From assembly GCF_900113575.1 (NCBI RefSeq), contig NZ_FOPV01000012.1, forward strand, positions 1 to 64,000: a stretch of 64,000 nt of DNA, given 5' to 3'. Under the pieces are notes generated by a model. That model was not told where the DNA came from and ran no database searches. It saw only the letters and a list, made by a program, of their open reading frames with translations. The position numbers and the translations under genes are program-made. Positions 36,256-55,400 of this stretch are shown piece after piece (position 1 is the first letter of the stretch; each line of letters begins with the position of its first letter). The DNA comes from Nitrosospira sp. Nsp14 (GTDB lineage Bacteria; Pseudomonadota; Gammaproteobacteria; Burkholderiales; Nitrosomonadaceae).

Positions 36256-37392
36256 CTAGCCCAATGGACGCTTTCGCCGCGCCGTGAACCCCAGCAGGCC
36301 CAGCCCTGCTAAAACCATGGCGTAGGATTCCGGTTCAGGGATAAGGCCAACGGCGATGACCTGGCCCGCGTTATTGATGTCTAAGGCGGTGTATAGCCAA
36401 ACTCCGTCCGGATCAACCAGTGAATTGAGATCGGTAACCCCCGTGCCATTGGCACCGGTAATGAAAGCAGCGGCGCTAGTCGAGGTGGATGAAAATCCCA
36501 CCACCTGCCCCGCATCGTTGATGCCAGATGCGTAGCTGTAATTACCACCTAAAGTATCGAGGAACCTTATACTCTCGCCATTGGGACCGGTCATGAAAGC
36601 ATGAAGATCATCGGGGGTTGTGGAATATCCCACCACTTGCCCAGCATCGTTGATGTCAGAAGCGCTGCTCCCAACGCCCCCTAAAGTGCCAAGATCCATC
36701 ATTCTTACGCCTTCGGGACTGGTGACGAAAGCATGATTTGGACCGTTGGTCGTCTCCGAAGCACCCACCACTTGCCCAGCAGCGTTGATGCCAGTAGCCC
36801 CGCTATTATTCCCGCCAAGAGTGCCAAGGTCCCTCATGCTTTCGCCATTGGGACCGGTGATAAAAGCATGACTCTCCCCGCCGGCTCTCTCGGAAAATCC
36901 CACCACTTGCCCAGCATCGTTGATATCAGAAGCGATGCTCTGAACGCCCCCTAAAGTGCCAAGGTCCCTCATCCCCAACCCATCAGGGCCAGTGATGAAA
37001 GCATGAATCATCCCGCTCGCGGTATCGGAATATCCCACCACCTGCCCGGCGCCGTTGATGCCATTAGCCCAGCTCCGGTTCCCGCCCAGGGTGCCAAGGT
37101 CCCTCATGCCCACCCCATCCGGGCCGGTGATAAAAGCATGATCCCAAGCCCCAGGAGCGCTCCCCTGAAGGGAGTAACTCCCCACCACTTGTCCGGCATC
37201 GTTGATCGCCTGGGCATCTGTGACACCCCCGCCCAAACTCCCTAGCTGTCTCGCGGTGTTGCTGTTAAGGTCAATCAGGAATGTTTCCCAGATAAGGTCC
37301 TGGGCGGTGGCATGAGTGACAAAACCGAGGCCAGCAAACAGAGATGCAGCGAGGATAAAGGTGCGGATTTTAGAGCGAAGCGCAATTTTCAT
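36256..37392 (-). CDS. HAF-repeat PEP-CTERM protein, copy 1
   Basis: 378 residues. Parts in order: signal peptide (MKIALRSKIRTFILAASLF...ATAQ, about 1-30); a short strand (LIDLNSNTARQLGSLGG); six repeats of about 45 residues, each built as HAFITGPDG.GMRDLGTLGG followed by ..A.GINDAGQVVG (the HAF extracellular repeat); a distinct terminal half-repeat (VTDLNSLVDPDGVWL...DINNAGQVIAVG); and a PEP-CTERM tail PEPESYAMVLAGLGLLGF with the basic end ARRKRPLG. The tail is the sorting signal cleaved by an exosortase, so the protein should be exported and processed at the cell surface. No exosortase is in the window. RBS AGGAGAG lies about 9 nt upstream. It is the first and outermost of the tandem family, with a slightly degraded promoter. 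Confidence 0.9.
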   Translation of the reverse strand: MKIALRSKIRTFILAASLFAGLGFVTHATAQDLIWETFLIDLNSNTARQLGSLGGGVTDAQAINDAGQVVGSYSLQGSAPGAWDHAFITGPDGVGMRDLGTLGGNRSWANGINGAGQVVGYSDTASGMIHAFITGPDGLGMRDLGTLGGVQSIASDINDAGQVVGFSERAGGESHAFITGPNGESMRDLGTLGGNNSGATGINAAGQVVGASETTNGPNHAFVTSPEGVRMMDLGTLGGVGSSASDINDAGQVVGYSTTPDDLHAFMTGPNGESIRFLDTLGGNYSYASGINDAGQVVGFSSTSTSAAAFITGANGTGVTDLNSLVDPDGVWLYTALDINNAGQVIAVGLIPEPESYAMVLAGLGLLGFTARRKRPLG

Positions 37393-37442
37393 GATGATCT
37401 CTCCTGAGAAGGATGCGCACTATCGAAGCAGGGCCCGATTTA

Positions 37443-37470
37443 ACACTGGGTGAAGAAGCTGAATTGTCAA
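37443..37470 (-). promoter_or_regulatory. Family promoter of HAF copy 1
   Basis: TTGACA at 37470-37465 on the minus strand, then 16 nt, then CAGTGT at 37448-37443. The -35 box and the following ATTC match the other family promoters; the -10 box is the poorest of the set. Confidence 0.5.
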
Positions 37471-37641
37471 GGCAGGAGGGATAGGCATCTTGGCCCTTTG
37501 GTAACATCTGTAAAAACCTATCCTGAGCCTGAACGTCGGTTCGGCAGGGGGTTCGCAGGGGTCAGATAGGACAAAGACCGGAGGCAGGCGGGAGGCCCGT
37601 GATGGCTCTGAGCAGATACCGCGGTAAATTGGAACGCGAAT

Positions 37642-38355
37642 CTAGATCAGCAGGCGCTGTCGCCGCGCCATGAACCCCAGCAGGCCCAGCCCAGCTAAAA
37701 ACATGGCGTACGACTCGGGCTCGGGAATTTGGATGGCGATGACCTGACCCTCGTTATTGATGTCTATCCGTTACCTAGAATAACGCCATCCGGCAGGTCG
37801 ACTAGCGAATTGAGGTCGGTCATGCCTTCGCCATTAGGCCCGTGACGAAAGCATGGGCAGGGCCTCGGATGTCCAGGAATATCCAACAACCTGCCCGATA
37901 TCATTGGTGCCCAATGCGAAATTGCCGTAAAAACCACCTAACGTACCAAGGTCCCTCATGCCGAGGCCATCGGCTCCCCGTGATGAAAGCATAGGCGGAG
38001 CCCAGAGCCGTGTAGGACCACCACACCGACCGCCTGGCCAGCATCGTTAACGCCAAAAGCCTCGCTGTAACCGCCCCAAGCGTGCCAAGATCTCTCATCC
38101 CCATGCCACCAGCGCTGGTGAGGAAGGCATGGTAATCTCCAGCAGCAACGCGGGACTATCCTACCGCCTGCCCCGCATCGTTGATGCCAGTAGCACGGCA
38201 CGGCTGGAACTGCCGCCCACTGTGCCAAGGTCCCTCATACCCATCCCATTCGGTCCGGTGATGAAAGCACGGATTGCCCCGCATTATTAATGTCGTAAAC
38301 CCAGTCGCCAGGGTTGCCAATAACCCTCATGTCATCACCGTCGGGGGCACAGCAC
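37642..38355 (-). pseudogene. HAF-repeat PEP-CTERM remnant, copy 2
   Basis: The 3' end is intact as a PEP-CTERM tail (PEPESYAMFLAGLGLLGF then MARRQRLLI and a stop at 37642), but upstream the HAF repeats are in several frames, with small deletions around 37765, 37840, 37975, 38090 and 38270, and no signal peptide or start can be found. About four repeat units can be traced. No family promoter precedes it. It is a long-decayed copy lying between two intact ones. Confidence 0.85.
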
Positions 38356-38371
38356 GAGTTTTAACGGGTTT

Positions 38372-39532
38372 CTACAACGCCTCCCGCCTTTGCCGAATCA
38401 TGAACGCGAGTAGTCCCAGCCCGGCTAAAAACATGGCGTAGGTTCCGGGTTCGGGGATAACGCCGATGGCTATCACTTGGTCCACGTTATTGATGCCGGT
38501 GGCTTCGGTTAGAACCAGCCCACCACGCACATCAACGAGCGAATTGAGATCCATCATGCCTGTGCCATCGGGGCCGGTAATGAAAGCATGGCGAGCGCCT
38601 TCAACCGTGGGAGAATAACCCACCACCTGTCCAGCCTCGTTGAAGCCCTGAGCGATGCTGTAATCAAATCCGCCACTACCGCCCAAAGTGCCAAGGTCTC
38701 TCATCCCCATCCCATCGGGGCCGATGATGAAAGCATGGGGGGCGCCTCCAGCGGTGTAAGACCAACCCGCCGCCTGCCCGGCGCCGTTGATGCCAGAAGC
38801 ATCGCTGTGATCACCGCCCAAAGTGCCAAGGTCTCTCATACCCATCCCGTCGGGGCCGGTGATGAAAGCATGCTGAAGACCTTCAGCCGTGTAAGACCAA
38901 CCCGCCACCTGCCCGGCGTCGTTGATGCTGGAAGCACTGCTTTCAGTACCGCCCAAAGTGCCAAGGTCTCTCATACCCATCCCGTCGGGGCCGGTGATGA
39001 AAGCATGGCTGGGGCCGCCTCCAGCCGCGAGAGACCAACCCACCACCTGCCCGGCGTCGTTGATGCTGGAAGCACCGCTATGATCATAGAAGCCAGTGCC
39101 GCCCAACGTGCCAAGGTCTCTCATCCCCATCCCGTCGGGGCCGGTGACGAAAGCATGGTGAAGACCTTCAGCCGTGTAAGACCAACCCGCCACCTGTCCC
39201 GCATCGTTAATGCTGGAAGCACCGCTATGATCATAGAAGCCAGTGCCGCCCAACGTGCCAAGGTCTCTCATCCCCATCCCGTCGGGGCCGGTGATGAAAG
39301 CATGCCGAAGACCTTCAGCCGTGGAAGACCAACCCGCCACCTGCCCGGCGTCGTTGATGCGGTTAAAGCCGGAATCATACGGGCCACCACCACCGCCCAA
39401 AGTGCCAAGCTCGGTTACCGTCTTGCTGTTGAGGTCGATGAGATATGAACGTACTTGTGCGGAGGCGGGGGTGCCGAAACCCAGACCAGCGAAAAATGCT
39501 GCAGCGAGGATAAAGCCAGGGATGATTTTCAT
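38372..39532 (-). CDS. HAF-repeat PEP-CTERM protein, copy 3
   Basis: 386 residues, signal peptide MKIIPGFILAAAFFAGLG...ASAQ, six HAF repeats, terminal module MMDLNSLVDVRGG...INNVDQVIAIG and tail PEPGTYAMFLAGLGLLAFMIRQRREAL. The first three repeats contain an insert, and repeats 1-2 and 2-3 junctions carry GTGFYDHSGASSINDAGQV twice almost unchanged, also at DNA level (around 39040-39110 and 39190-39250), which points to a recent internal duplication. The tail lacks the usual ARR and has Q and E among the basic residues. RBS AAGAGGAG precedes the ATG. Confidence 0.9.
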   Translation of the reverse strand: MKIIPGFILAAAFFAGLGFGTPASAQVRSYLIDLNSKTVTELGTLGGGGGPYDSGFNRINDAGQVAGWSSTAEGLRHAFITGPDGMGMRDLGTLGGTGFYDHSGASSINDAGQVAGWSYTAEGLHHAFVTGPDGMGMRDLGTLGGTGFYDHSGASSINDAGQVVGWSLAAGGGPSHAFITGPDGMGMRDLGTLGGTESSASSINDAGQVAGWSYTAEGLQHAFITGPDGMGMRDLGTLGGDHSDASGINGAGQAAGWSYTAGGAPHAFIIGPDGMGMRDLGTLGGSGGFDYSIAQGFNEAGQVVGYSPTVEGARHAFITGPDGTGMMDLNSLVDVRGGLVLTEATGINNVDQVIAIGVIPEPGTYAMFLAGLGLLAFMIRQRREAL

Positions 39533-39868: not shown

Positions 39869-41194
39869 CTATCCCAGGCTAAACGTATTCCGGGCACTCA
39901 TCTTCTTTCGTCGCGCAATGAATCCAATCATGGCCAGGCCTGCAAGAAAGAGCGCAGAGGTCTCCGGCTCCGGGATGACTCCAATCGCGATGACCTGCCC
40001 TGCGTTATTGATGTCCACCGCCCCGGTTAGAATAATTCCCTCCGGCAGGTCAACCAGCGAATTGAGGTCGGTAATGCCCGCGCCATTAGGGCCAGTTATA
40101 AAAGCGTGGAAGGCCAAAGACCCGGCCTCGAGGTTAGACTGCCCAACCACCTGCCCGGCATTGTTGATCGCATACGCTCCGCTGTAATCTCCACCGAGCG
40201 TGCCGAGCTCCCTGGTGCCTGCGCCATCCGGCCCGGTAATGAAGGAGCGGTGAAGGTCAGGGAAGTCTTCTTCCGGCATCCAGTAAGTTAAGGTAACCTG
40301 GCCAGTATCATTAATTCCGGTAGCGCCACTTGAAATTGCGTTAGAGTCGGAGAGGCCAACGTCTCTAATGCCGACCCCATCCTCGCCGGTGATAAACGGT
40401 TGGTGGGAAGGATCGCCGGCGCTACCCGTAACCTGCCCTGATGCATTGATACTGGAAGGACTGACAAAATACCAGCCGCCGCCACCCCCGTCAGGACCAA
40501 CAGCGATATCCTTCATGCCCGCCCCATTCGGACCCGTGATAAAGGCATGCCAACTCCAACTCCCACAACACGGTTCGATCCGCTCCTCCGTGAACCATCC
40601 CACCACTTGCCCTTTATCATTGATGTCCCCAGCCTTACTGATGAGCTTACTTGCTGTGAGATCCCGCATACTCATTCCATCAACGTCGGTCATAAAAGCA
40701 TGCGAGGCGCCTCCAGATGTATCGGACGATCCCACCACCTGCCCGGAATTGTTGATGCCAGAGGCCTCGCTGTTCCTCCCGCCTAGAGTGCCAAGATCCC
40801 TCATCCCCATGCCGTTGGGGCCAGTGATGAAAGAATGGAAAGAATAGTCGTATGTTGTTACCACTACCTGCCCGCTATCGTTGATGTCATAAGCAACGGT
40901 GTACATCCCACCAAGAGTGCCAAGGTCCTTCATTCCTACCCCATCAGGGCCGGTGATAAAAGCATGCGAACCGCCGATGGAGTAAGACTCCCCCACCACC
41001 TGCCCGGCGTCGTTCAGCGCCGCGGGGCGAGTCTGTCCTCCCTCGAGGTTCCCTAACTCGGTCGCTGTCCTGGTGTTCAGATCAATAAAATAGGCGCGGT
41101 CCTGTGCGGCGGCATGAGTAATAAACCCAGGGCCCGCAAACAGGGCTGCAGCGAGGATAAAGCTGCTCGCTTTGAAGCAATGGGTAATTTTCAT
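39869..41194 (-). CDS. HAF-repeat PEP-CTERM protein, copy 4 (seven repeats)
   Basis: 441 residues from ATG 41194, the longest intact member. Signal peptide MKITHCFKASSFILAAALFAG...AAAQ, then seven diverged HAF units instead of six; several have lost the GMRDLGTLGG core (for example MRDLTASKLISKAGDI and GIRDVGLSDSNAI), and one carries two adjacent cysteines (RIEPCCGSW), rare in this family. Terminal module ITDLNSLVDLPEG...DINNAGQVIAIG and tail PEPETSALFLAGLAMIGF with IARRKKMSARNTFSLG. The frame remains open 48 bp upstream, but the signal peptide sets the start. It is probably an older copy under looser constraint. Confidence 0.88.
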   Translation of the reverse strand: MKITHCFKASSFILAAALFAGPGFITHAAAQDRAYFIDLNTRTATELGNLEGGQTRPAALNDAGQVVGESYSIGGSHAFITGPDGVGMKDLGTLGGMYTVAYDINDSGQVVVTTYDYSFHSFITGPNGMGMRDLGTLGGRNSEASGINNSGQVVGSSDTSGGASHAFMTDVDGMSMRDLTASKLISKAGDINDKGQVVGWFTEERIEPCCGSWSWHAFITGPNGAGMKDIAVGPDGGGGGWYFVSPSSINASGQVTGSAGDPSHQPFITGEDGVGIRDVGLSDSNAISSGATGINDTGQVTLTYWMPEEDFPDLHRSFITGPDGAGTRELGTLGGDYSGAYAINNAGQVVGQSNLEAGSLAFHAFITGPNGAGITDLNSLVDLPEGIILTGAVDINNAGQVIAIGVIPEPETSALFLAGLAMIGFIARRKKMSARNTFSLG

Positions 41195-41435: not shown

Positions 41436-41597
41436 ATGGCACATCTAAACGGTAGCCACTTCCGCAAGGCGCGCGACAGGGAATACTACCTCGTCCAACT
41501 GACGCGGACAGGCATCAAGAACCGTGAGAATGCATACTGGGCGGAGCGTGACATCGACTCGCACGACGTGATGAGCCGCTACGCCCTGGAGGATTAG
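41436..41597 (+). pseudogene. Truncated copy of the RHH antitoxin-like gene
   Basis: Residues from about ARDREYYLVQLTRTGIKN to the end DSHDVMSRYALED match the C-terminal two thirds of the intact gene at 53520-53714, but the DNA-binding N-terminal strand and helix are missing. The preceding DNA (CTAAACGGTAGCCACTTCCGCAA) matches 53281-53305, upstream of the intact gene, so about 285 bp were deleted here relative to that locus. An ATG at 41436 could still give a 53-residue peptide, but without the RHH strand I regard it as a remnant. Confidence 0.7.
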
Positions 41598-41619
41598 CAC
41601 CGAGTGCAGGGTAAGTAAT

Positions 41620-41861
41620 GCGGGGCGGATCGTTGTGCTGAGGCCACCCCACGACTTGTCCCGAGCTGTTTATGTCATCTGCCCAAACACGATAGCCGCC
41701 GCTTAAAGTGCTAATCTCGGTCGCGGTCCTGCTGTTGAGATCATGAGATAAGAACGATAAGGTTGGTCCTGGGCGATCGCCTGAGTTATAAAGCCGGGGC
41801 TAGCGAACAGAGCTACAGGGAGGAAAAACTTCCGGTTTTAAAGCCGTGGGGTCTTTTTCGT
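41620..41861 (-). pseudogene. HAF-repeat protein remnant, copy 5 (N-terminal piece)
   Basis: On the minus strand the sequence matches the family signal peptide and first strand (FASPGFITQAIAQDQPYR...TATEISTLSGG...INSSGQVVGWP), then ends. The would-be start codon is ACG instead of ATG at 41861, and a stop follows within the signal peptide. Only the first unit remains, next to the truncated antitoxin-like gene. Together they look like the scar of a deletion in a once complete unit. Confidence 0.75.
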
Positions 41862-41942
41862 GATGAGGGACTTCGCTGGAAGGGATACTGCTGGAGGAGC
41901 AGCACGATTTCAAGGTAGACCACGGAGTCGGCTAGCATAGGC

Positions 41943-43112
41943 CTACCCCAGGCTAAAACCTCCAGCATTCATCTTTTTTCGCCGCGCGGTGAATCCGACA
42001 AGGGCCAGGCCTGCAAGAAAGAGCGCATAAATCTCCGGCTCCGGGACAACTCCGATTGCCACCACTTGCCCGTTGTTATTGATGCCGATGGCATCAGTAA
42101 AAATCACCCCGGGCGGATGAACCAGGGAATTGAGGTCCGTCACGCCCGCGCCATTGGGGCCGGTGATAAAAGCATGCGGATCGCGTCCATCGTAACGGCC
42201 TCCAGCCGTGTAAAATGAGCCCACCACCTGCCCGGAATCGTTGATGCCATTAGCGTTGGTCAACGGAGGGCCCATAGGGGTAAGATCCCTCATATCCATC
42301 CCGTCCGGGCCGGTGATGAAAGCATGCGAGTCGTTTATCGGCGTCTCCGTTATAAAAGATCCCACCACCTGGCCCGTAGCGTTGATGCCATTAGCACCGC
42401 TGTTAATACTGGCTAAAGGTCCAAGGTCTCTCATACCCATCCCGTTGGCGCCGGTAATGAAAGCAAGGTAGCCCCCGCTAGCCGCGCCAAACTCGCCCAC
42501 CACCTGTCCGGCATCGTTGATGCCCCTTGCAACGCTGTTAATCCCCAAACTGGCAAGGGCTCTCATACCCATCCCATCGGGGCTCGTGATGAAAGCATCA
42601 TGCAAACCACTAGCCAGATCAGAAGCACCCACTACCTGGCCAGCCTCATTGATGGCATAAGCCGAGCTCCTACCACCGTCCAAAGTGCCAAGGTCTCTCA
42701 TACCCATCCCATTGGGTTCGGTGATGAAAGCATGGAGAGCGCCTCCAGCCGTTTCAGACGAACCCACCACCTGCCCGGCGTCGTTGATGTCGGATGCCCC
42801 GCTGCTAGAGCCGCCCAAGGTGCCAAGGTCTCTCATGCCGGTCCCGTTGGGGCCAGTGATGAAAGCGTGGGGAAAGCCGCCAGCTGTGACAAACGTACCC
42901 ACCACTTGTCCGGAATCGTTGATGCCATATGCAGAGCTAAAATTATGGTTCACGGTGCCGAGATCGGTTGCTGTTTTGCTGTTGAGGTCGATAAAGAATG
43001 CATGTTCTACTTGTTGTACTTGGGCGGAAGCGCTGGTGCCGAAACCCAGACCAGCAGAAAATGCTGCAGCAAGGATAAGGCCACGGACTTTGAAGCCACG
43101 GATGACTTTCAT
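41943..43112 (-). CDS. HAF-repeat PEP-CTERM protein, copy 6
   Basis: 389 residues. Signal peptide MKVIRGFKVRGLILAAAFSAG...ASAQ; six HAF repeats, with GMRDLGTLGGSSSGASDIN near the middle; terminal module VTDLNSLVHPPGVIF...GINNNGQVVAIG; tail PEPEIYALFLAGLALVGF with TARRKKMNAGGFSLG. The C-terminal FSLG ending is shared with copies 4, 7, 8, 10 and 11 and marks a subfamily. The spacer upstream holds the largest of the Tn3 transposase remnants. Confidence 0.9.
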   Translation of the reverse strand: MKVIRGFKVRGLILAAAFSAGLGFGTSASAQVQQVEHAFFIDLNSKTATDLGTVNHNFSSAYGINDSGQVVGTFVTAGGFPHAFITGPNGTGMRDLGTLGGSSSGASDINDAGQVVGSSETAGGALHAFITEPNGMGMRDLGTLDGGRSSAYAINEAGQVVGASDLASGLHDAFITSPDGMGMRALASLGINSVARGINDAGQVVGEFGAASGGYLAFITGANGMGMRDLGPLASINSGANGINATGQVVGSFITETPINDSHAFITGPDGMDMRDLTPMGPPLTNANGINDSGQVVGSFYTAGGRYDGRDPHAFITGPNGAGVTDLNSLVHPPGVIFTDAIGINNNGQVVAIGVVPEPEIYALFLAGLALVGFTARRKKMNAGGFSLG

Positions 43113-43537: not shown

Positions 43538-44728
43538 TCAACTACCGGCCTGCCCCAGGCTAAAAGCTTCCCCACCCATCTCCTTTCGCCGTGCAATGAA
43601 ACCGATCAGGGCCAGGCCTGCAAGAAGCAGCGCGTAGGTCTCAGGCTCCGGAACGATTCCGATGGCAACCACCTGCCCATTGTTATTGATGTCGTTGGCA
43701 TGCGTTAGAACCACTCCCACCGGCAGATCAACCAGCAAATTGAGGTCCATCATGCCTGCTCCGTTGGGGCCGGTGACGAAAGCATGCTCTATGTCCGGGC
43801 CTCCAGCAATGCCCGAATGACCCATGGCCGAACTACCCACCACCTGCCCCGCGTTATTGATGGCGCGAGCCTCGCTGCCATTACCGCCCAAAGTGCCAAG
43901 GTCTCTCATGTTTGTCCCGTTGGAGCCGGTAATAAAGGCATGACCGTAAGAATAAGGATCAATGTCCACGGCATTTGTGGCCCTTCCCACCACTTGGCCG
44001 GCATTGTTAATATCATTGGCCCAGCTGTCGTTCCCGCCGAGAGTTCCAAGATCTGTCATGCCGACGCCGTTGGGGCCCGTTATAAAAGCATGAGATGGTC
44101 CGGTCGTGTAGTCGTACCCTACGACCTAGCCCGCGTCATTGATTCCGAAAGCGGAACTGTATCGTCCTCCAAGGCTCTTCATGCCCATGCCATTCGGGCC
44201 AGTTATAAAAGCATGAGATACTTGATCACTTCTAACCGATAGGTCCCCGACGACCTGCCCGGTGTTATTGATATCATAAGCATGACTAAGCGAATACTCT
44301 TCGAATGGGCCTAGATTGGTCATTCCCCTACCATTGGGCCCAGTTATGAAAGCATGTGAAGTGTTCCCTACGCCGGGAAGAAAGGAGGTACCGGCCACTT
44401 GCCCCGAAGCGTTGATACCAGAAGCCGAACTCCCGCCTCCGCCCAGATCACCGAGATCGGTCATGCCGACGCCATTGGGTCCGGTAATAAAAGCACGCTG
44501 ACCGGCGGCGGTGTAGGAGAATCCCGCTACTTGCCCGGAATCGTTGATAGCAGAGGCGTAACTAGAATCCCCGCCCAGCATACCGAGACTTGTCACCTGC
44601 CCAGTGTTGAGGTCAACAATGTACGAGACATTTTGTTGGGCAGAGGCAGGAAATATAAAACCGAAACCGGCACTCACTGCTGCGGCGAGGATAAGGCTGG
44701 GAATTTTGAAGCCACGGATGATTTTCAT
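43538..44728 (-). pseudogene. HAF-repeat PEP-CTERM gene with in-frame amber stop, copy 7
   Basis: From ATG 44728 (MKIIRGFKIPSLILAAAVSAG...ASAQ) the frame runs through three repeats into a fourth, where TAG at 44128-44126 replaces the invariant Gln codon of NDAGQVVG; the same frame then continues for two and a half further repeats, the terminal module MMDLNLLVDLPVG and tail PEPETYALLLAGLALIGF with IARRKEMGGEAFSLGQAGS. Every other member has CAG at this place, so a single C-to-T change is the only lesion. Without it the product would be 396 residues with six repeats. The promoter and RBS are intact. Confidence 0.85.
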
Positions 44729-44828: not shown

Positions 44829-44972
44829 GGGGCACGAAATCCAGGATGCCTGTCAGGTCGTCCACCTCAGAGCCTGCAGGCCCTTCTGGGGCCAGCATGG
44901 ACGGTGCGCATTGGCACGACGAAGCTTCAGCGTCCCGGAAGTTATTAACCCGAAGTTTATTCAACTACAGGC

Positions 44973-45505
44973 CTATCCCAAGCTAATAGCTTCCCCATCC
45001 ATCTTCTTTCGCCGCGCGATGAAACGATCAGAGCTAAGCCTGCAAGAAGAAGCGCGAGCGATGCTGACATCTTCACCTAACGAGCCAAGGTCCCTTATGC
45101 TCTCGCCATTAGAGCCAGTGATGAAGGCAGTTTTAGAAGAAGAAGTTGGAGTAGAATTTCCCACCACTTGCGCCGCCTCATTGATGTCCGCCGCGTCATC
45201 GTAGATACTACTACCTGCCAAGCTCAGATCTCTCATCCCCATGCCATCAGGACCGGTAATGAAGCCATGGTTAAGTCCTTGACCTGAGGGAAAATAATAT
45301 CCCACCACCCGTCCGACATCATTCAACGCCCTAGGTACGGTCGTACCTCCCTCCAGGCGTTCAAGCTGGGTTACCGTCCTTGTGTTGAGGTCAATCAGGA
45401 ATGGAAGGTGTTCCTGGGCGACGGCATGAGTACCATGGCCCAGACCGACATCAGGGCAACGCGCAGAATGAGGTTGCTGACGTTGAAGCAACGGTTGAGT
45501 GACAT
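44973..45505 (-). pseudogene. HAF-repeat protein remnant, copy 8 (internal deletion)
   Basis: ATG 45505 starts a degraded signal peptide (MSLNRCFNVSNLILRVALM) that shifts frame before LPFLIDLNTRTVTQLERLEGG. About two and a half repeats follow, then GEDVSIA runs straight into the PEP-CTERM helix in the wrong frame (ALLLAGLALI readable in another frame; ARRKKMDGEAISLG in this one). The middle repeats, the terminal module and the PEP motif are deleted. The promoter upstream is still near-consensus, so transcription may persist. Confidence 0.85.
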
Positions 45506-45545
45506 GGCATCCTCCGGCAGGGCGATGTTTAGGATCGGTTACTTC

Positions 45546-45588: not shown

Positions 45589-46679
45589 TTATCCCGGATT
45601 TTCCGCCTTCTTTCGTCTCGCCATGAACCCGACCAAGCCTAAGCCAGCCAGCAGCAAGGCATAGGTTTCAGGTTCGGGAACACTCGTTGCGATGATCTGC
45701 CCCCGGTTATTGATGTCCACGGCGTTTGTTAAAAGAAGCCCGTCCGGCAGGAAATCCAGCGAATTAAGGTCCGTCATGCCTACGCCATTGGGGCCGGTCA
45801 CAAAGGCATGAATATTGCCAGAGACGGTGGGGGAATTTCCAACCACCTGTCCCGCGTCATTGATCCCCTCAGCGTCGGTACCAAGTCTGCCTAAATTGCC
45901 AAGGGCCGTTATACCCACACCATTGGGTCCCGTGATGCCCGCGCCCCCCGCTACCTGCCCGGAAGCGTTCATGTCGCTGGCAACATCGCCACGGCCCCCA
46001 AATCTGCCAAGAACCTGCGTCCCGGCGCCGTCGGGACCGGTGATGAACGAAACAAAGCCCCCCCCTCCGGCGGTGCGAACACTGCAAGCACCTGCCCCGC
46101 ATCGTTTATCGCAAACGCAGCGCTGTCGGCACCCGCCGGAATGCCGCCAAGATCCCTCATCCCCACGCCGTTGGGACCAGTGATGAAAGCATGCAGAGAA
46201 TTGTCTGTAGTGGTACGTACTCCCACCACCTGCCCCGCACTGTTGATGCCTGTAGCCCTACTATTATCTCGCCCCAAAGTGCCTAAGTCGCGCATCCCGA
46301 TGCCATTGGGACCGGTGATAAAAGCATGGTCAGCGCCCGTCGCCGTCCTGAACTCTCCCACCACCTGCCCCGAATCGTTAATCCCTAAAGCCCGGCTGAA
46401 GTTGCCGCCCAAAGAGACCAGGTTCCTGATGCCCTCGCCATCAGGCCCGGTGATGAAGCCCATCCCTGAGGTTTCTCCCACCAGCTGCCCAGCATGGTTT
46501 ATGGCCTCAACAGATATGAGATGACCCGGAGACCCAAGCTCCTTTACTGTCCTGTTGTTGAGGTCGATGAGGTATGAATGTTGTACTTGTGCGGCGGCGC
46601 TGGTGGCGAAACCCAGACCAGCAGAAAATGCTGCAGCGAGGATAAAGCCACGGACTTTGAAACCAGGGGTGATTTTCAT
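45589..46679 (-). pseudogene. HAF-repeat PEP-CTERM gene frameshifted in a G8 tract, copy 9
   Basis: ATG 46679 gives signal peptide MKITPGFKVRGFILAAAFSAG...AAAQ and four repeats up to VFAPPEGGALF; at the run of eight G (minus strand; C8 at 46058-46065) the family sequence continues in another frame (GGFVSFITGPDGAGTQVLG...MNASGQVAG) to the terminal module MTDLNSLDFLPDG and tail PEPETYALLLAGLGLVGF with MARRKKAENPG. A G9 (or G6) tract would give one open frame of about 363 residues with six repeats. As sequenced, the product would stop shortly after the tract, without the sorting tail. This fits either slipped-strand on/off switching or a homopolymer sequencing error. Confidence 0.8.
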
Positions 46680-46755
46680 GATGAATCCTCTTTATTTTTT
46701 TTCGATGAAAGGATAGGACTGCCGGTGCTGTCAAAAAGCAATACTCCAATTTTTA

Positions 46756-46783
46756 AAAATAGATAAAGGATTTGAATTGTCAA
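46756..46783 (-). promoter_or_regulatory. Family promoter of HAF copy 9
   Basis: TTGACA at 46783-46778, 16 nt, TATTTT at 46761-46756, the best match in the family to the sigma70 consensus together with copy 10. Confidence 0.65.
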
Positions 46784-46830
46784 GGCGACGAAATGCAGGA
46801 TGCCTGTCCGCGCGTCCGTCGCCATGCCTG

Positions 46831-47000
46831 GAAATCTTGCCCATCGGTCGCCCTTAGGCTGGCAGCACATCAACCTGACAGTCGATTACCTACGGGATAC
46901 GTCTCCGATTCTTGGGCCAAACCAGTTTCGGCCGCTTCGGACCCTTATGCATGACTTCCCCGCAGCGGCTTAGCGTGCTTTAAAGCGCGAACCGTGTCTT
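46831..47000 (+). pseudogene. Tn3-family transposase 3' remnant, site 2
   Basis: NLAHRSPLGWQHINLTVDYL and PILGPNQFRPLRT can be read, the very end of a Tn3-type TnpA, shorter than site 1. The following DNA up to the 3' end of HAF copy 10 (CTTTAAAGCGCGAACCGTGTC...) is common to all three sites. It is almost identical to site 3. Confidence 0.8.
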
Positions 47001-47004
47001 TACC

Positions 47005-48150
47005 TCAACTACCGGCCTGCCCCAGGCTAAAAGCTTCCCCACCCATCTTCTTTCGCCGCGCGACAAACCCGACAAGGGCCAGGCCAGCAAGAAGCAGCGC
47101 GTAGCTCTCAGGCTCCGGAACGATTCCGATGGCAATGACCTGCCCCGCGTTATTATTGATGCCGTAGGCTCGTTCTAGAATCACCCCGCCAGGCACGTTA
47201 ACCAGAGAATTGAGGTCCATCATGCCCATGCCATCGGGGCCAGTGATGAAAGCATGGCTGTAGACGCCCCCAGCCGTGGAAGAATAACCCGCCACCTGCC
47301 CGGCGTCGTTGATGCCATAAGCCTGGCTGTTAGCACCACCTAAGGTGCCAAGGCCTCTCATGCCCATCCCATCGGGGCCGGTGATGAAAGCCTCTGCAGG
47401 CTCGAAAGGCCAACCGCCCACCACCTGCCCGGCATTGTTAATATCATTGGCCCAGCTGTCGGTCCCGCCGAGAGTTCCAAGGTCTCTCATGCCCATCCCG
47501 TCGGGGCCGGTGATGAAAGCATGGTAGGTGGCGTCTCCAGCCTTGTAAAAACTACCCGCCACCTGCCCGGCGTCGTTGATGCCATTAGCAATACTATCAG
47601 CACCGCCTAAAGTGCCAAGGTCTCTCATGCCCATCCCGTTGGGGCCGGTGATGAAGGCATGGGCGTGAGACTGACCTACCACCTGCCCGGCGTCGTTGAT
47701 GCCCCGAGCGTCGCTAAAAGTACGACCTATGCCAAGGTCTCTCATGCCCATCCCGTCGGGGCCGGTGATGAAAGCATGGTAGATGCCGTCTCCAGCCAAG
47801 TAAGCATTACCCACCACCTGGCCGGCAGCGTTGATGCCCCAAGCAACGCTGTAATTACCACCTAAGGCGCCAAGGTCTCTCATGCCCATGCCATCGGGGC
47901 CAGTGATGAAAGCATGGCTGTAGACGTCCCCAGCCTTAGAATAACCCGCCACCTGCCCGGCGTCGTTGATGCCGAAAGCATAGGCTTCAGCACCGCCTAA
48001 GGTGCCAATATCAGTTACCGTCTTGCTGTTGAGGTCGACGAGGAATGAATGTCTTACTTGTGCGGAGGCACTGGTGGCGAAACCCAGACCAGCAGAAAAT
48101 GCTGCAGCCAGGATAAAGCCACCAAGTTTGAAGCCAAGGGTGATTTTCAT
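47005..48150 (-). CDS. HAF-repeat PEP-CTERM protein, copy 10
   Basis: 381 residues. Signal peptide MKITLGFKLGGFILAAAFSAG...ASAQ; six repeats very close to the consensus HAFITGPDGMGMRDLGTLGG, one of them shortened (GRTFSDARGINDAGQVVGQSHAHAFITG); terminal module MMDLNSLVNVPGGVILERAYGINNN; tail PEPESYALLLAGLALVGF with VARRKKMGGEAFSLGQAGS. It lies within a 1.47-kb direct repeat: the 350 bp before and after it are nearly identical (46680-47030 and 48151-48500), so this copy was part of a recent tandem duplication. Confidence 0.92.
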   Translation of the reverse strand: MKITLGFKLGGFILAAAFSAGLGFATSASAQVRHSFLVDLNSKTVTDIGTLGGAEAYAFGINDAGQVAGYSKAGDVYSHAFITGPDGMGMRDLGALGGNYSVAWGINAAGQVVGNAYLAGDGIYHAFITGPDGMGMRDLGIGRTFSDARGINDAGQVVGQSHAHAFITGPNGMGMRDLGTLGGADSIANGINDAGQVAGSFYKAGDATYHAFITGPDGMGMRDLGTLGGTDSWANDINNAGQVVGGWPFEPAEAFITGPDGMGMRGLGTLGGANSQAYGINDAGQVAGYSSTAGGVYSHAFITGPDGMGMMDLNSLVNVPGGVILERAYGINNNAGQVIAIGIVPEPESYALLLAGLALVGFVARRKKMGGEAFSLGQAGS

Positions 48151-48474: not shown

Positions 48475-48845
48475 TCAACTACAGGCCTTCCCCAGGCTAA
48501 AATCTTCCCCACCCGTCTTCTTTCGTCGCGCGATGAATCCGACAAGGGCCAGGCCTGCAAGAAAGAGCGCATAAATCTCCTGCTCCGGGACGATTCCAAT
48601 AGCGATGACCTGTCCCGCGTTATTGATTCCGGTGGCTCGTTCTGGAATCCACCCGTTGGGCAGATGAATCAGAGAATTGAGGTCCATCCCCGTCGGGGCC
48701 GATGATGAAAGCATGGGTGCCGCCTTCAGCCGTGCCAGAATAACCCGCCACCTGCCCGATGCCGTTGATGCCATTAGCCTCAGATGTGCCGGTAACACCG
48801 TCTAAGGTGCCAAGGTCTCTCATACCCATCCCATCGGGGCCGGCA
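48475..48845 (-). pseudogene. HAF-repeat PEP-CTERM remnant, copy 11 (5' truncated)
   Basis: One repeat (GPDGMGMRDLGTLDGVTGTSEANGIN...GQVAGYSGTAEGGTHAF) begins abruptly near 48845; a frameshift follows at about 48690 (IIGPDGDGP against MDLNSLIHLPNGW), then the terminal module and tail, where the motif is PEQE instead of PEPE (PEQEIYALFLAGLALVGF with IARRKKTGGEDFSLGKACS). It has no signal peptide, promoter or start, and cannot be expressed as a family protein. Confidence 0.85.
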
Positions 48846-49054: not shown

Positions 49055-50200
49055 CTATACCAGCAGCCGGTTTCGAGAGGTGATGACCCCCATTAGGCCC
49101 AGCCCGGCTAAAAACAGGGCGTAGGCTTCGGGTTCAGGTATAACGCCAAAAGCGATGACTTGACCCACGTTATTTATGTCCACGGCGTCAGTTAGAATAA
49201 TCCCGCCTGGCAAGTCGACCAGCGAATTCAGGTCAGTCATGCCTATGCCATCTGCGCTGGTGATGAAAGCATGGTCTGTCCCCCAGGACATCCGGGAACG
49301 CCCCACCGCCTGCCCGGCATCGTTGATCCCCAAAGCGGAACTGTCATTACCCCCTAAAGTTCCAAGGTCCCTCATGCCGACGCCATCGGGGCCAGTGATG
49401 AAAGCATGGTAAGTGCCGCTGGACGTCGCGGAATACCCGACCACTCGCCCGGTGTTGTTGATGCTGTGAGCGACGCTCAAATCGCTGAGATCGCCGCTTA
49501 ATGTGCCAAGGTCACTCATGCCTGCGCCATCTGCGCCGGTGATGAAAGCATGGTCGCTGCCCCAGCGCGATACGGAACGCCCCACCACCTGTCCGGCATC
49601 GTTGATATCATAGGCGTGGCTGACGCCCAATTTAGAATTGATAGAATCAAATAAAGTGCCTAGGTTCGTTAGCCCGGCGCCGTTAGGGCCGGAGATGAAA
49701 GCACGAGTATTACCTTCGGTCGTGCCGGAATATCCCACCACCTGCCCCGTATCGTTGATGCTAAATGCGTAGCTGTAATTACCGCCTAAAGTGCCTAGGT
49801 CCCTCATGCCCATACCATTAGCGCCGGTAATGAAAGCATGGGATTGACGGTTGGCCGTCACAGATACACCCACCACCTGCGCGGCATCGTTGATGCCATA
49901 TGCGGAACTGTAACTGTAAGGAGCTAAATCGCCAAGGTCCCTCATGCCCACGCCATCGGGGCCGGTAATGAAAGCGCGGGCTCGAAAGTCCGTCGCAGAA
50001 AGACCCGCCACCTGCCCGGAATCGTTGAGCGCCCGGGGAAGAGTTGGCCATCCGCCGAAACTCCCTAATTCGGTCGCTGTTCGAGTATCAATATCAATAA
50101 GATAGATCTGTGCGGCGGCGTAAGGTATAAAACCAAGACCGGTAAAAAGAGCTGCACCCAGCAGCACACCACAGGCTTTGGCGCAATGAGTGGTGTTCAT
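49055..50200 (-). CDS. HAF-repeat PEP-CTERM protein, copy 12
   Basis: 381 residues. Signal peptide MNTTHCAKACGVLLGAALFTG...AAAQ, which carries two cysteines unlike its neighbours; first strand LIDIDTRTATELGSFGG; six repeats including the variant AFISGPNGAGLTNLGTLFDSIN; terminal module MTDLNSLVDLPGGIILTDAVDINN and tail PEPEAYALFLAGLGLMGVITSRNRLLV. The basic cluster is weaker than usual (SRNR instead of ARRK). The spacer upstream (50201-50460) holds only the promoter and a segment also found after copy 13. Confidence 0.9.
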   Translation of the reverse strand: MNTTHCAKACGVLLGAALFTGLGFIPYAAAQIYLIDIDTRTATELGSFGGWPTLPRALNDSGQVAGLSATDFRARAFITGPDGVGMRDLGDLAPYSYSSAYGINDAAQVVGVSVTANRQSHAFITGANGMGMRDLGTLGGNYSYAFSINDTGQVVGYSGTTEGNTRAFISGPNGAGLTNLGTLFDSINSKLGVSHAYDINDAGQVVGRSVSRWGSDHAFITGADGAGMSDLGTLSGDLSDLSVAHSINNTGRVVGYSATSSGTYHAFITGPDGVGMRDLGTLGGNDSSALGINDAGQAVGRSRMSWGTDHAFITSADGIGMTDLNSLVDLPGGIILTDAVDINNVGQVIAFGVIPEPEAYALFLAGLGLMGVITSRNRLLV

Positions 50201-51843: not shown

Positions 51844-53022
51844 TCAACCCGGATACAGCGATAGTTTCCAAGGCGTGTTTAGACCAATAAGCCGTTTTCG
51901 CGAGGCCATGAACCCAATCAAGCCCATCCCGGCTAAAAACATGGCGTAGGATTCGGGCTCGGGAACACCCAGTGCGATTACCTGGCCCACGTTATTGATG
52001 TCCCTGGCTTCAGTTAGAATAACGCCCCGCGGCAGGTTAACCACCGAATTCAGGTCCATCATACCCTTGCCATCGGGGCCGGTTATGAAAGCATGGGGGG
52101 AGTCCCCACCCATGTATGCCATGCCCACAACTTGCCCGGCGTCGTTGACGCCACGAGCCACGCTGTAGTCCATGGCTAACGCGCTAAGGTCCCTCATGCC
52201 CAGGCCATCAGGCCCGGTGATGAAAGCATGCCAAGAGCCGGCAGCCGTGGTTGACTGCCCCACAACCTGCCCGGCATCGTTTATGCCAGAAACGGTACTG
52301 AAGAAATTACCTCCTAAAGTGCCAAGGTCCGTTATGCCCTCGCCCGAGGGCCCGGTGATGAAAGCATGCAGGGGGGCGCCGGACATTGTGGACTCCCCTG
52401 CCACCTGACCGGAGTTATTGATGGCGACCGCGTTGTAAAGAACAACGCCATTCGGCAAATCGAACATCGAATTGAGGTCCGCGGGATCCGCGCCATTGGG
52501 GCCGGTGATGAAAGCGCGCTGAGTGCCGATTGTGGGATAGAAAAATCCCACCACCTGCCCGGCATCGTTGATGCCAGTAGCATAGCTGCTATCCCCGCCT
52601 AATCTGCCAAGGTCTTTCATCTCTGTGCCATTGGGACCGGTAATGAAAGCATGGGGGGTGTCGGACGTGGAGGAATACCCAACCACCTGCCCCGCATTAT
52701 TGATGCCCAAAGCCTCGACATAAACGTAATTACCACCTAAGGTGCCAACGTCCCTCATGCCCACGCCGTCGGACCCGGTGATGAAAGCACGCCCATGACC
52801 CGTGGACGTGGAGGCATTCCCAACCACCTGCCCGGCATCATTGATCGCATTGGCCGCCGTGAAATCTCCACCGAGGTTCCCAAGTTGAATCACTGTCCTG
52901 CTGCTCAGGTCAATGAGATAGGAAGCTTGCCGCGCAGCCGCCTGAGTAGGAATACCCGAGCCAGCAACCAGCGCTGCGGCGAGCACTAGGCTGTGGACTT
53001 TGAAACTGTGAGTAATTTTCAT
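51844..53022 (-). CDS. HAF-repeat PEP-CTERM protein, copy 14 (mosaic)
   Basis: 392 residues from ATG 53022 (signal peptide MKITHSFKVHSLVLAAALVAG...AAAR). Six repeats, but in the middle (about 52420-52500 on the DNA) stands ADLNSMFDLPNGVVLYNAVAIN with NSGQVAGES, which is the terminal module normally found once, just before the tail. Here further HAF repeats and a second terminal module (MMDLNSVVNLPRGVILTEARDINN) follow. The tail is PEPESYAMFLAGMGLIGF with MASRKRLIGLNTPWKLSLYPG, longer than usual. It looks like the product of recombination between the 3' part of one copy and the internal repeats of another. Confidence 0.88.
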   Translation of the reverse strand: MKITHSFKVHSLVLAAALVAGSGIPTQAAARQASYLIDLSSRTVIQLGNLGGDFTAANAINDAGQVVGNASTSTGHGRAFITGSDGVGMRDVGTLGGNYVYVEALGINNAGQVVGYSSTSDTPHAFITGPNGTEMKDLGRLGGDSSYATGINDAGQVVGFFYPTIGTQRAFITGPNGADPADLNSMFDLPNGVVLYNAVAINNSGQVAGESTMSGAPLHAFITGPSGEGITDLGTLGGNFFSTVSGINDAGQVVGQSTTAAGSWHAFITGPDGLGMRDLSALAMDYSVARGVNDAGQVVGMAYMGGDSPHAFITGPDGKGMMDLNSVVNLPRGVILTEARDINNVGQVIALGVPEPESYAMFLAGMGLIGFMASRKRLIGLNTPWKLSLYPG

Positions 53023-53073: not shown

Positions 53074-53101
53074 AAACTAGACGACGGAGCTGAATTGTCA
53101 A
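53074..53101 (-). promoter_or_regulatory. Family promoter of HAF copy 14
   Basis: TTGACA at 53101-53096, 16 nt, TAGTTT at 53079-53074. The rest of the spacer up to 53280 is homologous to the spacers upstream of copies 4 and 13; from 53280 to 53519 I see nothing recognisable. Confidence 0.6.
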
Positions 53102-53519: not shown

Positions 53520-53714
53520 ATGGAACTCAGGCTGGAGATTAACTCTGATATCGAATTAAGGCTGAACCGCCTTGTCGAGCGGTATGGGCATGACAGGGAA
53601 TACTATCTCTCTGAATTGACACACACGGGCATCAAGAACCTTGAGAGCGCATACTGGGCCGAGAGCAGCATCGACTCGAACGAGGTGATGAGCCGATACG
53701 CGTTGGAGGACTAG
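53520..53714 (+). CDS. Ribbon-helix-helix (CopG/RelB-like) antitoxin-type protein
   Basis: 64 residues. An N-terminal strand (MELRLEINSDIE) followed by two short helices (LRLNRLVERYGHDREYYLSEL) and a C-terminal acidic tail (SAYWAESSIDSNEVMSRYALED) match the RHH antitoxin/stability-protein plan, in which the strand pair binds operator DNA and the tail binds a toxin. AAGGGAG lies about 8 nt before the ATG. No RelE/ParE-type toxin frame follows: the next gene is a HAF copy on the opposite strand. It is the only intact plus-strand gene in the array, and a truncated second copy lies at 41.4 kb, so it was probably carried along in the duplications. Confidence 0.7.
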   Translation: MELRLEINSDIELRLNRLVERYGHDREYYLSELTHTGIKNLESAYWAESSIDSNEVMSRYALED

Positions 53715-53760
53715 CGTAAGAAACGTGATCGTGGAGATCGGGCAACTGGACGAAGCCAGT

Positions 53761-54918
53761 TTAGAAAGAATGGAAATAACGTTGGACTTCAGGCCGCTTC
53801 TCCGCGACGAGACGCTCCCGCCATACCACGAATCCGATCAACCCCAACCCGGCCAGGATCATGGCATAGGCTTCGAGTTCCGGGACTTGAGCGATGGCAA
53901 GGACTTGGCCCGCGTCATTAATATCCACGGCGCGAATTAGAAGAACCCGGTCCGGCCAGTCAACCAGTGAATTAAGGTCCGTCATGCCCTCTCCATTAGG
54001 GCCAGTGATGAAAGCATGCCAGCCTCCTTCCGCACCCGTCGTCGACCCGCCTACTACGCGCCCCTCATTATTGATTCCGGTGGCTTCGCTGGCACGCCCA
54101 CCGAGCGTCCCGAGATCGGTCATGCCCTCGCCATTCGGTCCGGTGATGAAGGCATGCTGGTAAGAGTCACTCATTGCGGTGTAAGAAAGGCCGGCCACTT
54201 GCCCGGCATCGTTGATTCCGTGCCCCTCGCTATAGCTTCCACCCAGTGTTCCAAGATCAGTTATCCCTATACCGTCAGGACCGGTGACGAAAGCGTGGCT
54301 GTTGAACACTCCCACTGCCTGTCCGGAATTGTTGATTCGGAAGGATGCGCCAACGCCCCCGGTGACGGGAGTGTTCCAGCCTTCTCCATTGGAGCCAGTG
54401 ACCACAATGTCGGCTTCTGATGCCGTGACCGACTGGCCCACCACCTGCCCGGCGTCGTTAATGCCCGTGGCGAAGCTGTAATCTCCGCCAAACGTGCCGA
54501 GATCAGTCATGCCTTTGCCCTTTGGGCCTGTAATAAAGGCACGTAAGTCTCCCGCGCCATTTTCGGCCCAGCCCGCCACCTGGCCAGCGCTGTTGATGTC
54601 ATGCGCGCGGCTGTTCACTCCACCGAGGGTTCCGAGGCTGATCATGCCTATGCCGCCGGGGCCGGTAATGAAGGCCTCGTGATGTCCTTCTGCCCCCGAA
54701 TAATAAGACCAACCCACTACCTGCCCGGATTCGTTTATTGCATCTGCTTCAGTTATGCCCCCGAAGCTTCCGAGCTCCGTCAACGTCCTCGTATTCAAAT
54801 CGATAAGGTAGGGGCGTTCCTGGGCGACGGCGAGGGTTACAACCCCCAGGTTGGCGGATAAGACTGCCACAAGGAAAAGGAAAAAGCAGCGCACCTGTGC
54901 AGTATGCATAATCTTCAT
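53761..54918 (-). CDS. HAF-repeat PEP-CTERM-like protein, copy 15
   Basis: 385 residues, the most diverged intact copy. Signal peptide MKIMHTAQVRCFFLFLVAVLS...AVAQ; six repeats, one of which has lost the HAF core (ADIVVTGSNGEGWNTPVTGG); terminal module MTDLNSLVDWPDRVLLIRAVDIND; tail PELEAYAMILAGLGLIGF followed by VVWRERLVAEKRPEVQRYFHSF. The sorting motif is PEL instead of PEP and the basic residues are spread out, so processing by exosortase may be impaired and the protein may stay membrane-anchored or be non-functional. Confidence 0.88.
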   Translation of the reverse strand: MKIMHTAQVRCFFLFLVAVLSANLGVVTLAVAQERPYLIDLNTRTLTELGSFGGITEADAINESGQVVGWSYYSGAEGHHEAFITGPGGIGMISLGTLGGVNSRAHDINSAGQVAGWAENGAGDLRAFITGPKGKGMTDLGTFGGDYSFATGINDAGQVVGQSVTASEADIVVTGSNGEGWNTPVTGGVGASFRINNSGQAVGVFNSHAFVTGPDGIGITDLGTLGGSYSEGHGINDAGQVAGLSYTAMSDSYQHAFITGPNGEGMTDLGTLGGRASEATGINNEGRVVGGSTTGAEGGWHAFITGPNGEGMTDLNSLVDWPDRVLLIRAVDINDAGQVLAIAQVPELEAYAMILAGLGLIGFVVWRERLVAEKRPEVQRYFHSF

Positions 54919-54969
54919 GATCGAATGCTCCTCCTTGAGAAAGACAGCAGCGCCAGCAGGGCATGCTTT

Positions 54970-54997
54970 AAAATAGGCGACAGAGTCGGATTGTCAA
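54970..54997 (-). promoter_or_regulatory. Family promoter of HAF copy 15
   Basis: TTGACA at 54997-54992, 16 nt, TATTTT at 54975-54970. Good consensus although the gene it serves is the most diverged. Confidence 0.6.
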
Positions 54998-55212
54998 GGC
55001 AGGAGGAAATCTCCGTCGTAGCAGCGATAGCAGCAACAGCGCAAACTCATCTGCGCTACAGCGAGGATTTGGTAGTGGATCTGAAAGGGATCAGGTAGAT
55101 TAAATGCGGGGTCAGTCGCTGGGCGACGCCCATGAAGGTGAAGGTCGCGGTCGTAGATGGCGATAAAGAATAGTATCTAAGCAAAGTCTAGACCAGCCAC
55201 GGCGGACCAGCT

Positions 55213-55400
55213 ACGGCGCCCGCCGCACCATGAATCCAATCAACCCAAGTCCGGCAAGTAGCATGGCATAGGCCTCCGGTTCAGGGATGACCTGAGCGAT
55301 GACAGGGACCTGGCCCGCGTCATTGATACCCAAGGCGCTGGTGAGAACAACCCATAGGGCAGATCAATCAGCGAATTGAGGTCGATCGTGCCCTGCCACT
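55213..55400 (-). pseudogene. HAF-repeat PEP-CTERM remnant, copy 16 (tail only)
   Basis: The PEP-CTERM tail is readable (VIPEPEAYAMLLAGLGLIGF with MVRRAP and a stop), preceded by part of the terminal module (LNSLIDLPYG...LTSALGINDAGQVPVIAQ) with a frameshift. No HAF repeat, signal peptide or start remains. It marks the inner edge of the array; beyond it the sequence is unrelated. Confidence 0.8.

What the first reader, a model, noticed from the sequence alone, without database searches (positions are those of the whole stretch)
36256..55400. Tandem array of about 16 HAF-repeat PEP-CTERM genes
Sixteen related genes or remnants lie head to tail on the minus strand over 19 kb: nine intact, two with a single lesion, five decayed. 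HAF repeats and PEP-CTERM tails are known families, but such a dense expansion with independent promoters and shared relics suggests an actively diversifying surface-protein locus, comparable to antigenic or adhesin gene families. Nothing else is interleaved except transposase relics and an antitoxin-like gene.
Basis: partly seen in the sequence, partly recalled or inferred. Interest (0 to 1): 0.85.

Follow-up and report, generated by a model that had tools for sequence, protein, structure and literature searches.

The report
Array of surface propeller-protein genes
A soil ammonia-oxidising bacterium carries a 19-kb row of sixteen related genes and gene remnants for what look like exported, propeller-shaped proteins that gain, lose and exchange parts over time, probably giving the cell a varied set of surface or matrix proteins.

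Summary
Window 36256-55417 carries 16 HAF-repeat units on the minus strand: 9 open, 2 with apparently one lesion, 5 decayed. The genome is a Nitrosospira with exosortase A, exosortase B and PrsR.

Two congeners (Nitrosospira sp. Nsp2 and an unnamed species) hold an array between the same flanks; 16 others show no HAF frame in 12-14 kb there, three could be checked over 3-5 kb only, one lacks the flank gene. HAF repeats are most numerous in these three of 23 genomes.

The proteins are predicted seven-bladed beta-propellers with a signal-peptide-like start and PEP-CTERM tail. Across blades, variation and indels concentrate in loops of one face. Open copies are old paralogs (51-69% identical), mostly without orthologs in the sister arrays. 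Gene-end junctions were recently copied (98.7% over 300 bp, with a Tn3 relic); blades duplicate within genes. A TTGACA box lies 78-81 nt before six of nine open genes.

Sister orthologs show dN/dS 0.23-0.35 without excess change on the variable face. I favour birth-and-death of specialised proteins over antigenic variation. PEP-CTERM expansion, including in N. multiformis, was published in 2006; the locus anatomy and propeller repertoire are the new parts.

The parts
36256..37392 (-). g01, open HAF/PEP-CTERM gene, 378 aa
   Evidence: structure model
37645..38319 (-). p02, decayed HAF unit in several frames with PEP-CTERM end
   Evidence: PF07589 at 37660-37731
38372..39532 (-). g03, open HAF/PEP-CTERM gene, 386 aa; two blades 95% identical in DNA
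39869..41194 (-). g04, open gene, 441 aa from ATG at 41194; one HAF-like unit more than most
41471..41598 (+). fragment related to the RelB-like antitoxin frame at 53520
   Evidence: DNA match to the sister arrays; translation; no Pfam match
41611..41864 (-). p05, N-terminal remnant of a HAF gene
41943..43112 (-). g06, open HAF/PEP-CTERM gene, 389 aa
43294..43422 (+). Tn3 transposase C-terminal relic in the p07/g06 junction
   Evidence: PF01526 E 2.7e-9, 1.2e-8
43538..44728 (-). p07, HAF/PEP-CTERM gene with a single in-frame stop
44964..45533 (-). p08, chimeric remnant: its 5' part is 90% identical to an open gene of Nsp2, its 3' end resembles another HAF group
45589..46679 (-). p09, HAF gene with one frameshift at a run of eight G; part of its body is 77% identical to an open gene in both sister arrays
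46544..47154 (-). junction J1: 3' end of g10, intergenic stretch with Tn3 relic, promoter box and 5' end of p09
47005..48150 (-). g10, open HAF/PEP-CTERM gene, 381 aa
48015..48624 (-). junction J2: 3' end of p11, intergenic stretch with Tn3 relic, promoter box and 5' end of g10; near-copy of J1
48475..48841 (-). p11, truncated and frameshifted HAF remnant
49055..50200 (-). g12, open HAF/PEP-CTERM gene, 381 aa
50461..51621 (-). g13, open HAF/PEP-CTERM gene, 386 aa from ATG at 51621
51844..53022 (-). g14, open HAF/PEP-CTERM gene, 392 aa from ATG at 53022
53520..53711 (+). RelB-like antitoxin frame; 53488-53723 is 88-90% identical in DNA to both sister arrays
53761..54918 (-). g16, open HAF gene, 385 aa, with a degenerate PEP-CTERM motif (PELE)
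55220..55417 (-). p17, C-terminal remnant with PEP-CTERM motif

Best explanation
This is a birth-and-death gene array for exported, exosortase-processed beta-propellers. Shown by sequence: the open genes encode a signal-peptide-like start, six complete HAF units plus a split seventh (g04 has one more), and a PEP-CTERM-type tail (degenerate in g16); the genome has exosortase A, exosortase B and PrsR; arrays lie between the same flanks in two sister species with largely different members; gene-end junctions within the array have been copied recently; blades have been duplicated within genes. Predicted by model: a seven-bladed propeller closed by pairing of the N- and C-terminal strands. Inferred: exosortase A cuts the tail and releases or anchors the propeller in the exopolysaccharide layer; each gene has its own sigma-70-like promoter; one face of the propeller is a constant structural face while loops of the other carry copy-specific binding sites; the array supplies a repertoire of matrix- or cell-binding proteins, made by recombination at the near-identical gene ends and by blade duplication, thinned by decay, and then held by purifying selection.
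Against: No expression, localisation or binding data. The faces are assigned from strand alternation, not measured on coordinates. Replacements between sister orthologs are not enriched in face-2 loops; the trend is the other way (Fisher p 0.08). In the array alone the same-gene nearest-blade count (12 of 54) exceeds the permutation mean (5.1) but not the maximum (16). Array genes do not form a clade and are not significantly clustered in the tree (76 of 500 shuffles as low), so copies also arrive from, or go to, other loci. Seven of 16 units are broken, which would also fit a family in decline. TM-scores of the Foldseek matches are only about 0.5.
Confidence: 0.6

Rival explanations
1. An antigenic or adhesin variation locus under an arms race (phage, protist or competitor), in which new variants are favoured and copies act as donors for switching.
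For: Decayed copies next to open ones; recent junction copying; differing members between sister arrays; one-face variability between blades; the p09 frameshift sits at a run of eight G, absent from the sister genes, so p09 could in principle switch by slippage.
Against: Gene-wide dN/dS 0.23-0.35 between sister orthologs; no excess of replacements in variable loops; in the array only three runs of eight of one base and no longer ones, no di- to nonanucleotide tract in the size range scanned, about one C8/G8 run expected by chance; seven of nine open copies carry the exact TTGACA box, with no single expression site seen.
Confidence: 0.12
2. Largely neutral gene-family turnover: HAF genes multiply by unequal crossing-over and mobile-element activity, and most copies add little.
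For: Seven of 16 units broken; Tn3 relic copied along with the junctions; star-like tree with long tips; dN/dS 0.30-0.67 in three paralog pairs of the genome.
Against: Nine full-length open frames at 51-69% identity are unlikely to persist without selection; ortholog dN/dS well under 1; conserved upstream box.
Confidence: 0.2
3. HAF genes are cargo of a mobile element that inserts them at preferred sites.
For: Tn3 transposase relics in three junctions; contigs C23, C36 and C31 end in the same 95 bp near HAF genes; relatives of array members lie at other loci.
Against: No intact Tn3 transposase found in the genome (one relic over cut-off, one weak match); the relic is found only in the three junctions of this array among the loci compared; no inverted repeats of 40 nt or more in the array.
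Confidence: 0.08

Closest known systems
HAF repeat proteins (TIGR02913) with PEP-CTERM tails (TIGR02595/PF07589)
   Same: Repeat, signal-peptide-like start and tail are present in the open genes; the family is the formal home of these proteins.
   Different: Nine open and seven broken copies in 19 kb, and at least 150 HAF matches in the genome (150 of 297 candidates scored). In a sample of 299 genomes of the phylum 9, the window genome included, have a HAF match at E 1e-6; the other eight have at most nine, with at most 24 candidates scored per genome.
Lineage-specific PEP-CTERM expansions described by Haft et al. 2006 (PMC1569441; sections 5 and 7 and passages read)
   Same: That paper reports a clade of 20 PEP-CTERM domains, 17 from N. 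multiformis, and frequent duplication and loss between related species.
   Different: The sections read describe no tandem array, no HAF propeller and no junction exchange. Their sigma-54 motif pair was not tested as such; a simple -24/-12 scan found no score of 10 or more before 25 HAF frames, against 4 of 28 other rows (three genes, one counted twice).
Seven-bladed propeller lectins of Photorhabdus (PLL2, PHL) and the CylK propeller
   Different: 10-15% identity; no PDB sequence matched the profile at E 0.01; fold likeness shows no function. The blade number of PLL2 and PHL is recalled.
Cassette-based surface variation loci (vls, pilS and similar; recalled)
   Same: Conserved ends, variable middles, broken copies, copying between units.
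   Different: No single expression site seen, promoter box before most copies, purifying selection between sister orthologs, free-living host (habitat of the genus recalled).

Membership tests
HAF repeat family TIGR02913 | HAF unit above the curated cut-off | tested here: met
   9 of 9 open genes, 126-218 bits against 22.65
PEP-CTERM / exosortase substrate | C-terminal PEP motif, hydrophobic helix, basic end | tested here: met
   8 of 9 open genes match PF07589 in the genome search; g16 fails
PEP-CTERM / exosortase substrate | Exosortase in the same genome | tested here: met
   XrtA 355 bits (cut-off 208), XrtB 458 bits (cut-off 275)
PEP-CTERM / exosortase substrate | N-terminal signal peptide | tested here: inconclusive
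   Basic start, hydrophobic stretch and A-x-A type site seen by eye in 9 of 9; no signal-peptide predictor was available
PEP-CTERM / exosortase substrate | Tail is cleaved and protein sorted | not testable with these tools
   needs proteomics
Seven-bladed beta-propeller | Seven four-stranded blades around an axis | tested here: met
PrsR/sigma-54 PEP-CTERM regulon | -24/-12 promoter before the gene | tested here: inconclusive
   0 of 25 HAF frames score 10 or more, 4 of 28 other rows (three genes) do; simple scan, start sites guessed, some rows spurious
Antigenic-variation locus | One expression site with silent donor copies, or phase switching | tested here: inconclusive
   Promoter-like box before most copies; one C8/G8 run at the p09 frameshift, about one expected by chance; no other short tract except two T8 runs before the starts of p09 and g10
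Antigenic-variation locus | Diversifying selection on exposed loops | tested here: inconclusive
   dN/dS 0.23-0.35; face-2 8 of 272, face-1 14 of 220 replacements; leans against, but four gene pairs of sister species and gene-wide averages only

The most novel reading that the evidence does not exclude
The array is a recognition repertoire: a constant propeller scaffold with one variable face, remade by blade duplication and by recombination at near-identical promoter/signal-peptide and anchor ends, so that each Nitrosospira lineage displays its own set of matrix lectins that decide which cells or polysaccharides it aggregates with.
Probability: 0.12. Interest if true: 0.75.

Novelty: new variant of a known kind. 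Interest (0 to 1): 0.5.

Why it matters
Exosortase substrates are numerous in environmental bacteria and mostly without known function. Here a family with one fold, many copies, clean sister-species comparisons and natural recombination markers sits in one locus of an ammonia oxidiser that matters for soil nitrogen. It makes testable whether PEP-CTERM proteins act as specific matrix or cell binders, and how a bacterium builds a propeller repertoire by shuffling blades and gene ends.

Tried and rejected
Phase switching: Tandem Repeats Finder gave no unit under 11 nt; a direct scan gave three runs of eight of one base in the array, one of them at the p09 frameshift. So slippage could concern p09; the overlaps or splits of four other broken copies that I looked at (three in the sister arrays, one at C23) have no run of six or more.

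Recent tandem duplication of whole genes: rejected as the main source, since open array copies are 51-69% identical and do not cluster in the tree. The recent copying seen is confined to junctions and blades.

A single unequal crossover as the source of g10: it predicts that g10 matches p09 from the 5' side and p11 from the 3' side up to one shared point. On the p09 side identity falls to 42-70% within about 130 bp of the start. On the p11 side it falls from 95-100% to 68-85% on entering the gene and can be followed for about 350 bp only, because p11 is truncated. Junction conversion or body replacement fits better, but the p11 side is weak evidence.

g01 as a true ortholog of the first sister gene: protein identity 54-58%, dS 1.3-1.5 against 0.56-0.77 for the flanks, DNA 57-72% within the gene; not claimed.

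Eight blades in g04: the second model left the extra stretch at low confidence; undecided.

Sequence relatives with solved structures: none at E 0.01. RNA families in the array: none at the gathering score; one match at the window start.

Literature, papers found: HAF repeat with PEP-CTERM 0; PEP-CTERM with Nitrosospira 2; HAF family or extracellular repeat 113, the 20 listed off topic; PEP-CTERM with exosortase and paralogous 3; with gene family, expansion and tandem 1; PEP-CTERM with beta-propeller 3; Nitrosospira with exosortase 1; N. multiformis with genome and surface proteins 3; PEP-CTERM with exosortase and extracellular matrix 6. No listed paper appeared from title and abstract start to describe this locus; two papers were opened (PMC1569441, sections 5 and 7 and passages; PMC9850573, abstract and outline). 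Most subscription papers and preprints are not in that library.

Rows dropped: searches used the window and nine of the fifteen other own-genome stretches (L020 and L026-L030 left out, among them an open 377-aa HAF frame in L030), and only HAF frames of at least 340 aa (25 own, 16 in the sister arrays; add one more sister gene). One search kept repeat units of 36-60 aa. One search used only flank alignments over 600 nt. The rows were limited to 120 nt and 76% identity or more. Some rows are spurious frames or the same gene twice, and start sites were guessed. The start choice for C36_6367, G22b_977 and some others is uncertain.
Full report
What is there. The window is G000:C35:1-64000, part of a 3.36-Mb genome in 54 contigs, 99.98% complete. 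The genus is Nitrosospira: congener G015 has a contig of the same length (761,712 bp) as the record of Nitrosospira sp. Nsp2 found with the gene that bounds the array (77% identity). Between a class I fructose-bisphosphate aldolase gene and that gene, which matches no NCBIfam family, lie 16 HAF units on the minus strand, from 36256 to 55417. Nine are open; p07 has one in-frame TAG; p09 a frameshift at a run of eight G; p02, p05, p08, p11 and p17 are remnants.

Sorting machinery. The genome has an exosortase A with an EpsI domain and an exosortase B, both above their cut-offs, and PrsR. All 23 genus genomes have exosortase matches. The genome has 76 PEP-CTERM matches at E 0.01; Haft et al. list 39 for N. 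multiformis (PMC1569441, passage seen, by a different model).

How unusual. In the genus search, matches at E 1e-6 were 100, 100 and 97 in G000, G022 and G015, where only 100 candidates per genome were scored, and 0 to 47 in the other 20. First-look candidates were 297, 208 and 187 against 12 to 89. In a sample of 299 genomes of the phylum, 9 had any match (the window genome among them), the other eight at most nine; there at most 24 candidates per genome were scored. The expansion is thus concentrated in three species of one genus, which are also the closest by the aldolase (88-89% identity, the next 83%).

Synteny. Flank genes run collinear into G015 and G022, with arrays of about 14.2 and 17.5 kb between them. 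By open frames they hold 8 and 9 long genes plus at least 2 and 3 broken ones. In 16 other congeners, 12-14 kb stretches holding the aldolase gene show no HAF frame by the motif scan; in three (G018, G008, G001) contig ends limit the stretch to 3-5 kb, also without HAF; G017 has no aldolase match. Two stretches around the relative of the other flank gene in G011 and G004 show none either; that gene was found in five of 23 genomes. Only p08, p09 and the antitoxin-like frame have DNA relatives of over 200 nt and 76% identity inside the sister arrays, apart from the end of a flank alignment that runs into g01. p08 and p09 lie in the opposite order there. p08 is a remnant here but an open gene in both sisters. 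Its 573 bp are 90.4% identical to Nsp2, above the best of 87 flank windows (86.7%, median 81%), which suggests exchange after the species parted. In contrast, four genes are 94-99.5% identical between G015 and G022.

Copying inside the array. Junctions J1 (46544-47154) and J2 (48015-48624), each holding the 3' end of one gene, the intergenic stretch and the 5' end of the next, are 92-94% identical without gaps, with a 300-bp core at 98.7%. In the p09 and g10 bodies identity is 42-82% per 40 bp; on the p11 side it drops to 68-85% on entering the gene, with single windows up to 94%. A third, older junction copy at 43359-43687 is 90% identical to J1. The core carries the C-terminal end of a Tn3 transposase, a non-HAF marker that shows that the junction itself was copied. 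Blades too are copied: 36 of 136 own-genome blades have their nearest relative in the same gene (4.8 expected, maximum 14 in 1000 permutations); in the array alone it is 12 of 54 (5.1 expected, maximum 16), which is suggestive only. When the nearest own-genome blade is in another gene, the same ordinal position is found in 32 of 100 cases against 16% by permutation, the mark of whole-gene duplication. The tree is star-like, array genes do not form a clade (76 of 500 shuffles as clustered), and some pair with genes at other loci.

Promoters. An upstream alignment of 13 units shows a conserved CCTTGACAATTC box; the exact TTGACA is present in 9 of 13, and in 7 of the 9 open genes. It lies 78-81 nt before the start in g01, g04, g12, g13, g14 and g16 and 103 nt before g10 (g04 and g16 recomputed from their starts). 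TTGACA occurs within 350 nt of 12 of 25 HAF frames and 2 of 28 other rows, with about 7% expected by shuffling. Haft et al. describe a sigma-54 element for many proteobacterial PEP-CTERM genes (section 7). My scan found no strong -24/-12 site before HAF frames, but it is simple and its power is low.

Selection and faces. Over 226 blades of 42 genes in three genomes, loops between strands B and C and between D and the next A average 2.87 bits of entropy, loops A-B and C-D 1.18 bits (permutation p 0.0004). Units with insertions: 55 in B-C, 34 in D (at its end, by my column borders), 37 in D-A, 1 in C-D. In an up-and-down meander the first pair of loops lies on one face and the second on the other (established geometry; I had no coordinates). 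Between sister orthologs, however, replacements are 8 of 272 sites on the variable face and 14 of 220 on the other (Fisher p 0.08), and dN/dS is 0.23-0.35. As yardsticks in the same pair of species, the other flank gene gives 0.13 and the aldolase 0.64 on six changes only. So copies differ on that face, yet each copy seems to keep its own version. That speaks for specialised paralogs and against an arms race, on the evidence of four gene pairs.

Verdict. The array is real and unusually dense. Its parts are known families, and PEP-CTERM expansion with gain and loss was reported in 2006, including for N. multiformis. What the searches named under Tried and rejected did not show in print is the shared locus in three Nitrosospira species, the propeller with one variable face, and junction copying marked by a Tn3 relic. 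Function as a set of matrix or cell binders is inference, helped by the floc role of a PEP-CTERM protein in Aquincola (PMC9850573, abstract).

Noticed in passing
L020 right end, L023 8151-8245, L027 1-95: Three contigs of the genome end in the same 95 bp, each near a HAF gene; it looks like a mobile-element end that broke the assembly.
   Followed up: partly
L018 13941-14651 and L019 7361-8071: A 711-bp stretch duplicated at 93% identity beside two HAF clusters, holding a frame that looks sialidase-like by eye.
   Followed up: partly
L018 11292-12806: A 505-aa HAF gene whose units are up to 90% identical in DNA: a young blade amplification in another cluster.
   Followed up: partly
window 46058-46065: A run of eight C (G on the coding strand) at the p09 frameshift; the genes of G015 and G022 have no run of eight there. 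A ten-base C run also lies at L026 6120, near another HAF cluster.
   Followed up: partly
window 53520-53711: RelB-like antitoxin frame, its region kept at 88-90% DNA identity in both sister arrays; the two overlapping upstream frames scanned beside it match no Pfam family.
   Followed up: partly
window 1-182: Match to the Rfam family psRNA2 (RF02349), cut by the window edge.
   Followed up: no
window 56361-59208: Response regulator and sensor kinase with CpxR/CpxA as best (below cut-off) matches, next to a Spy-like gene, just beyond the array flank.
   Followed up: no
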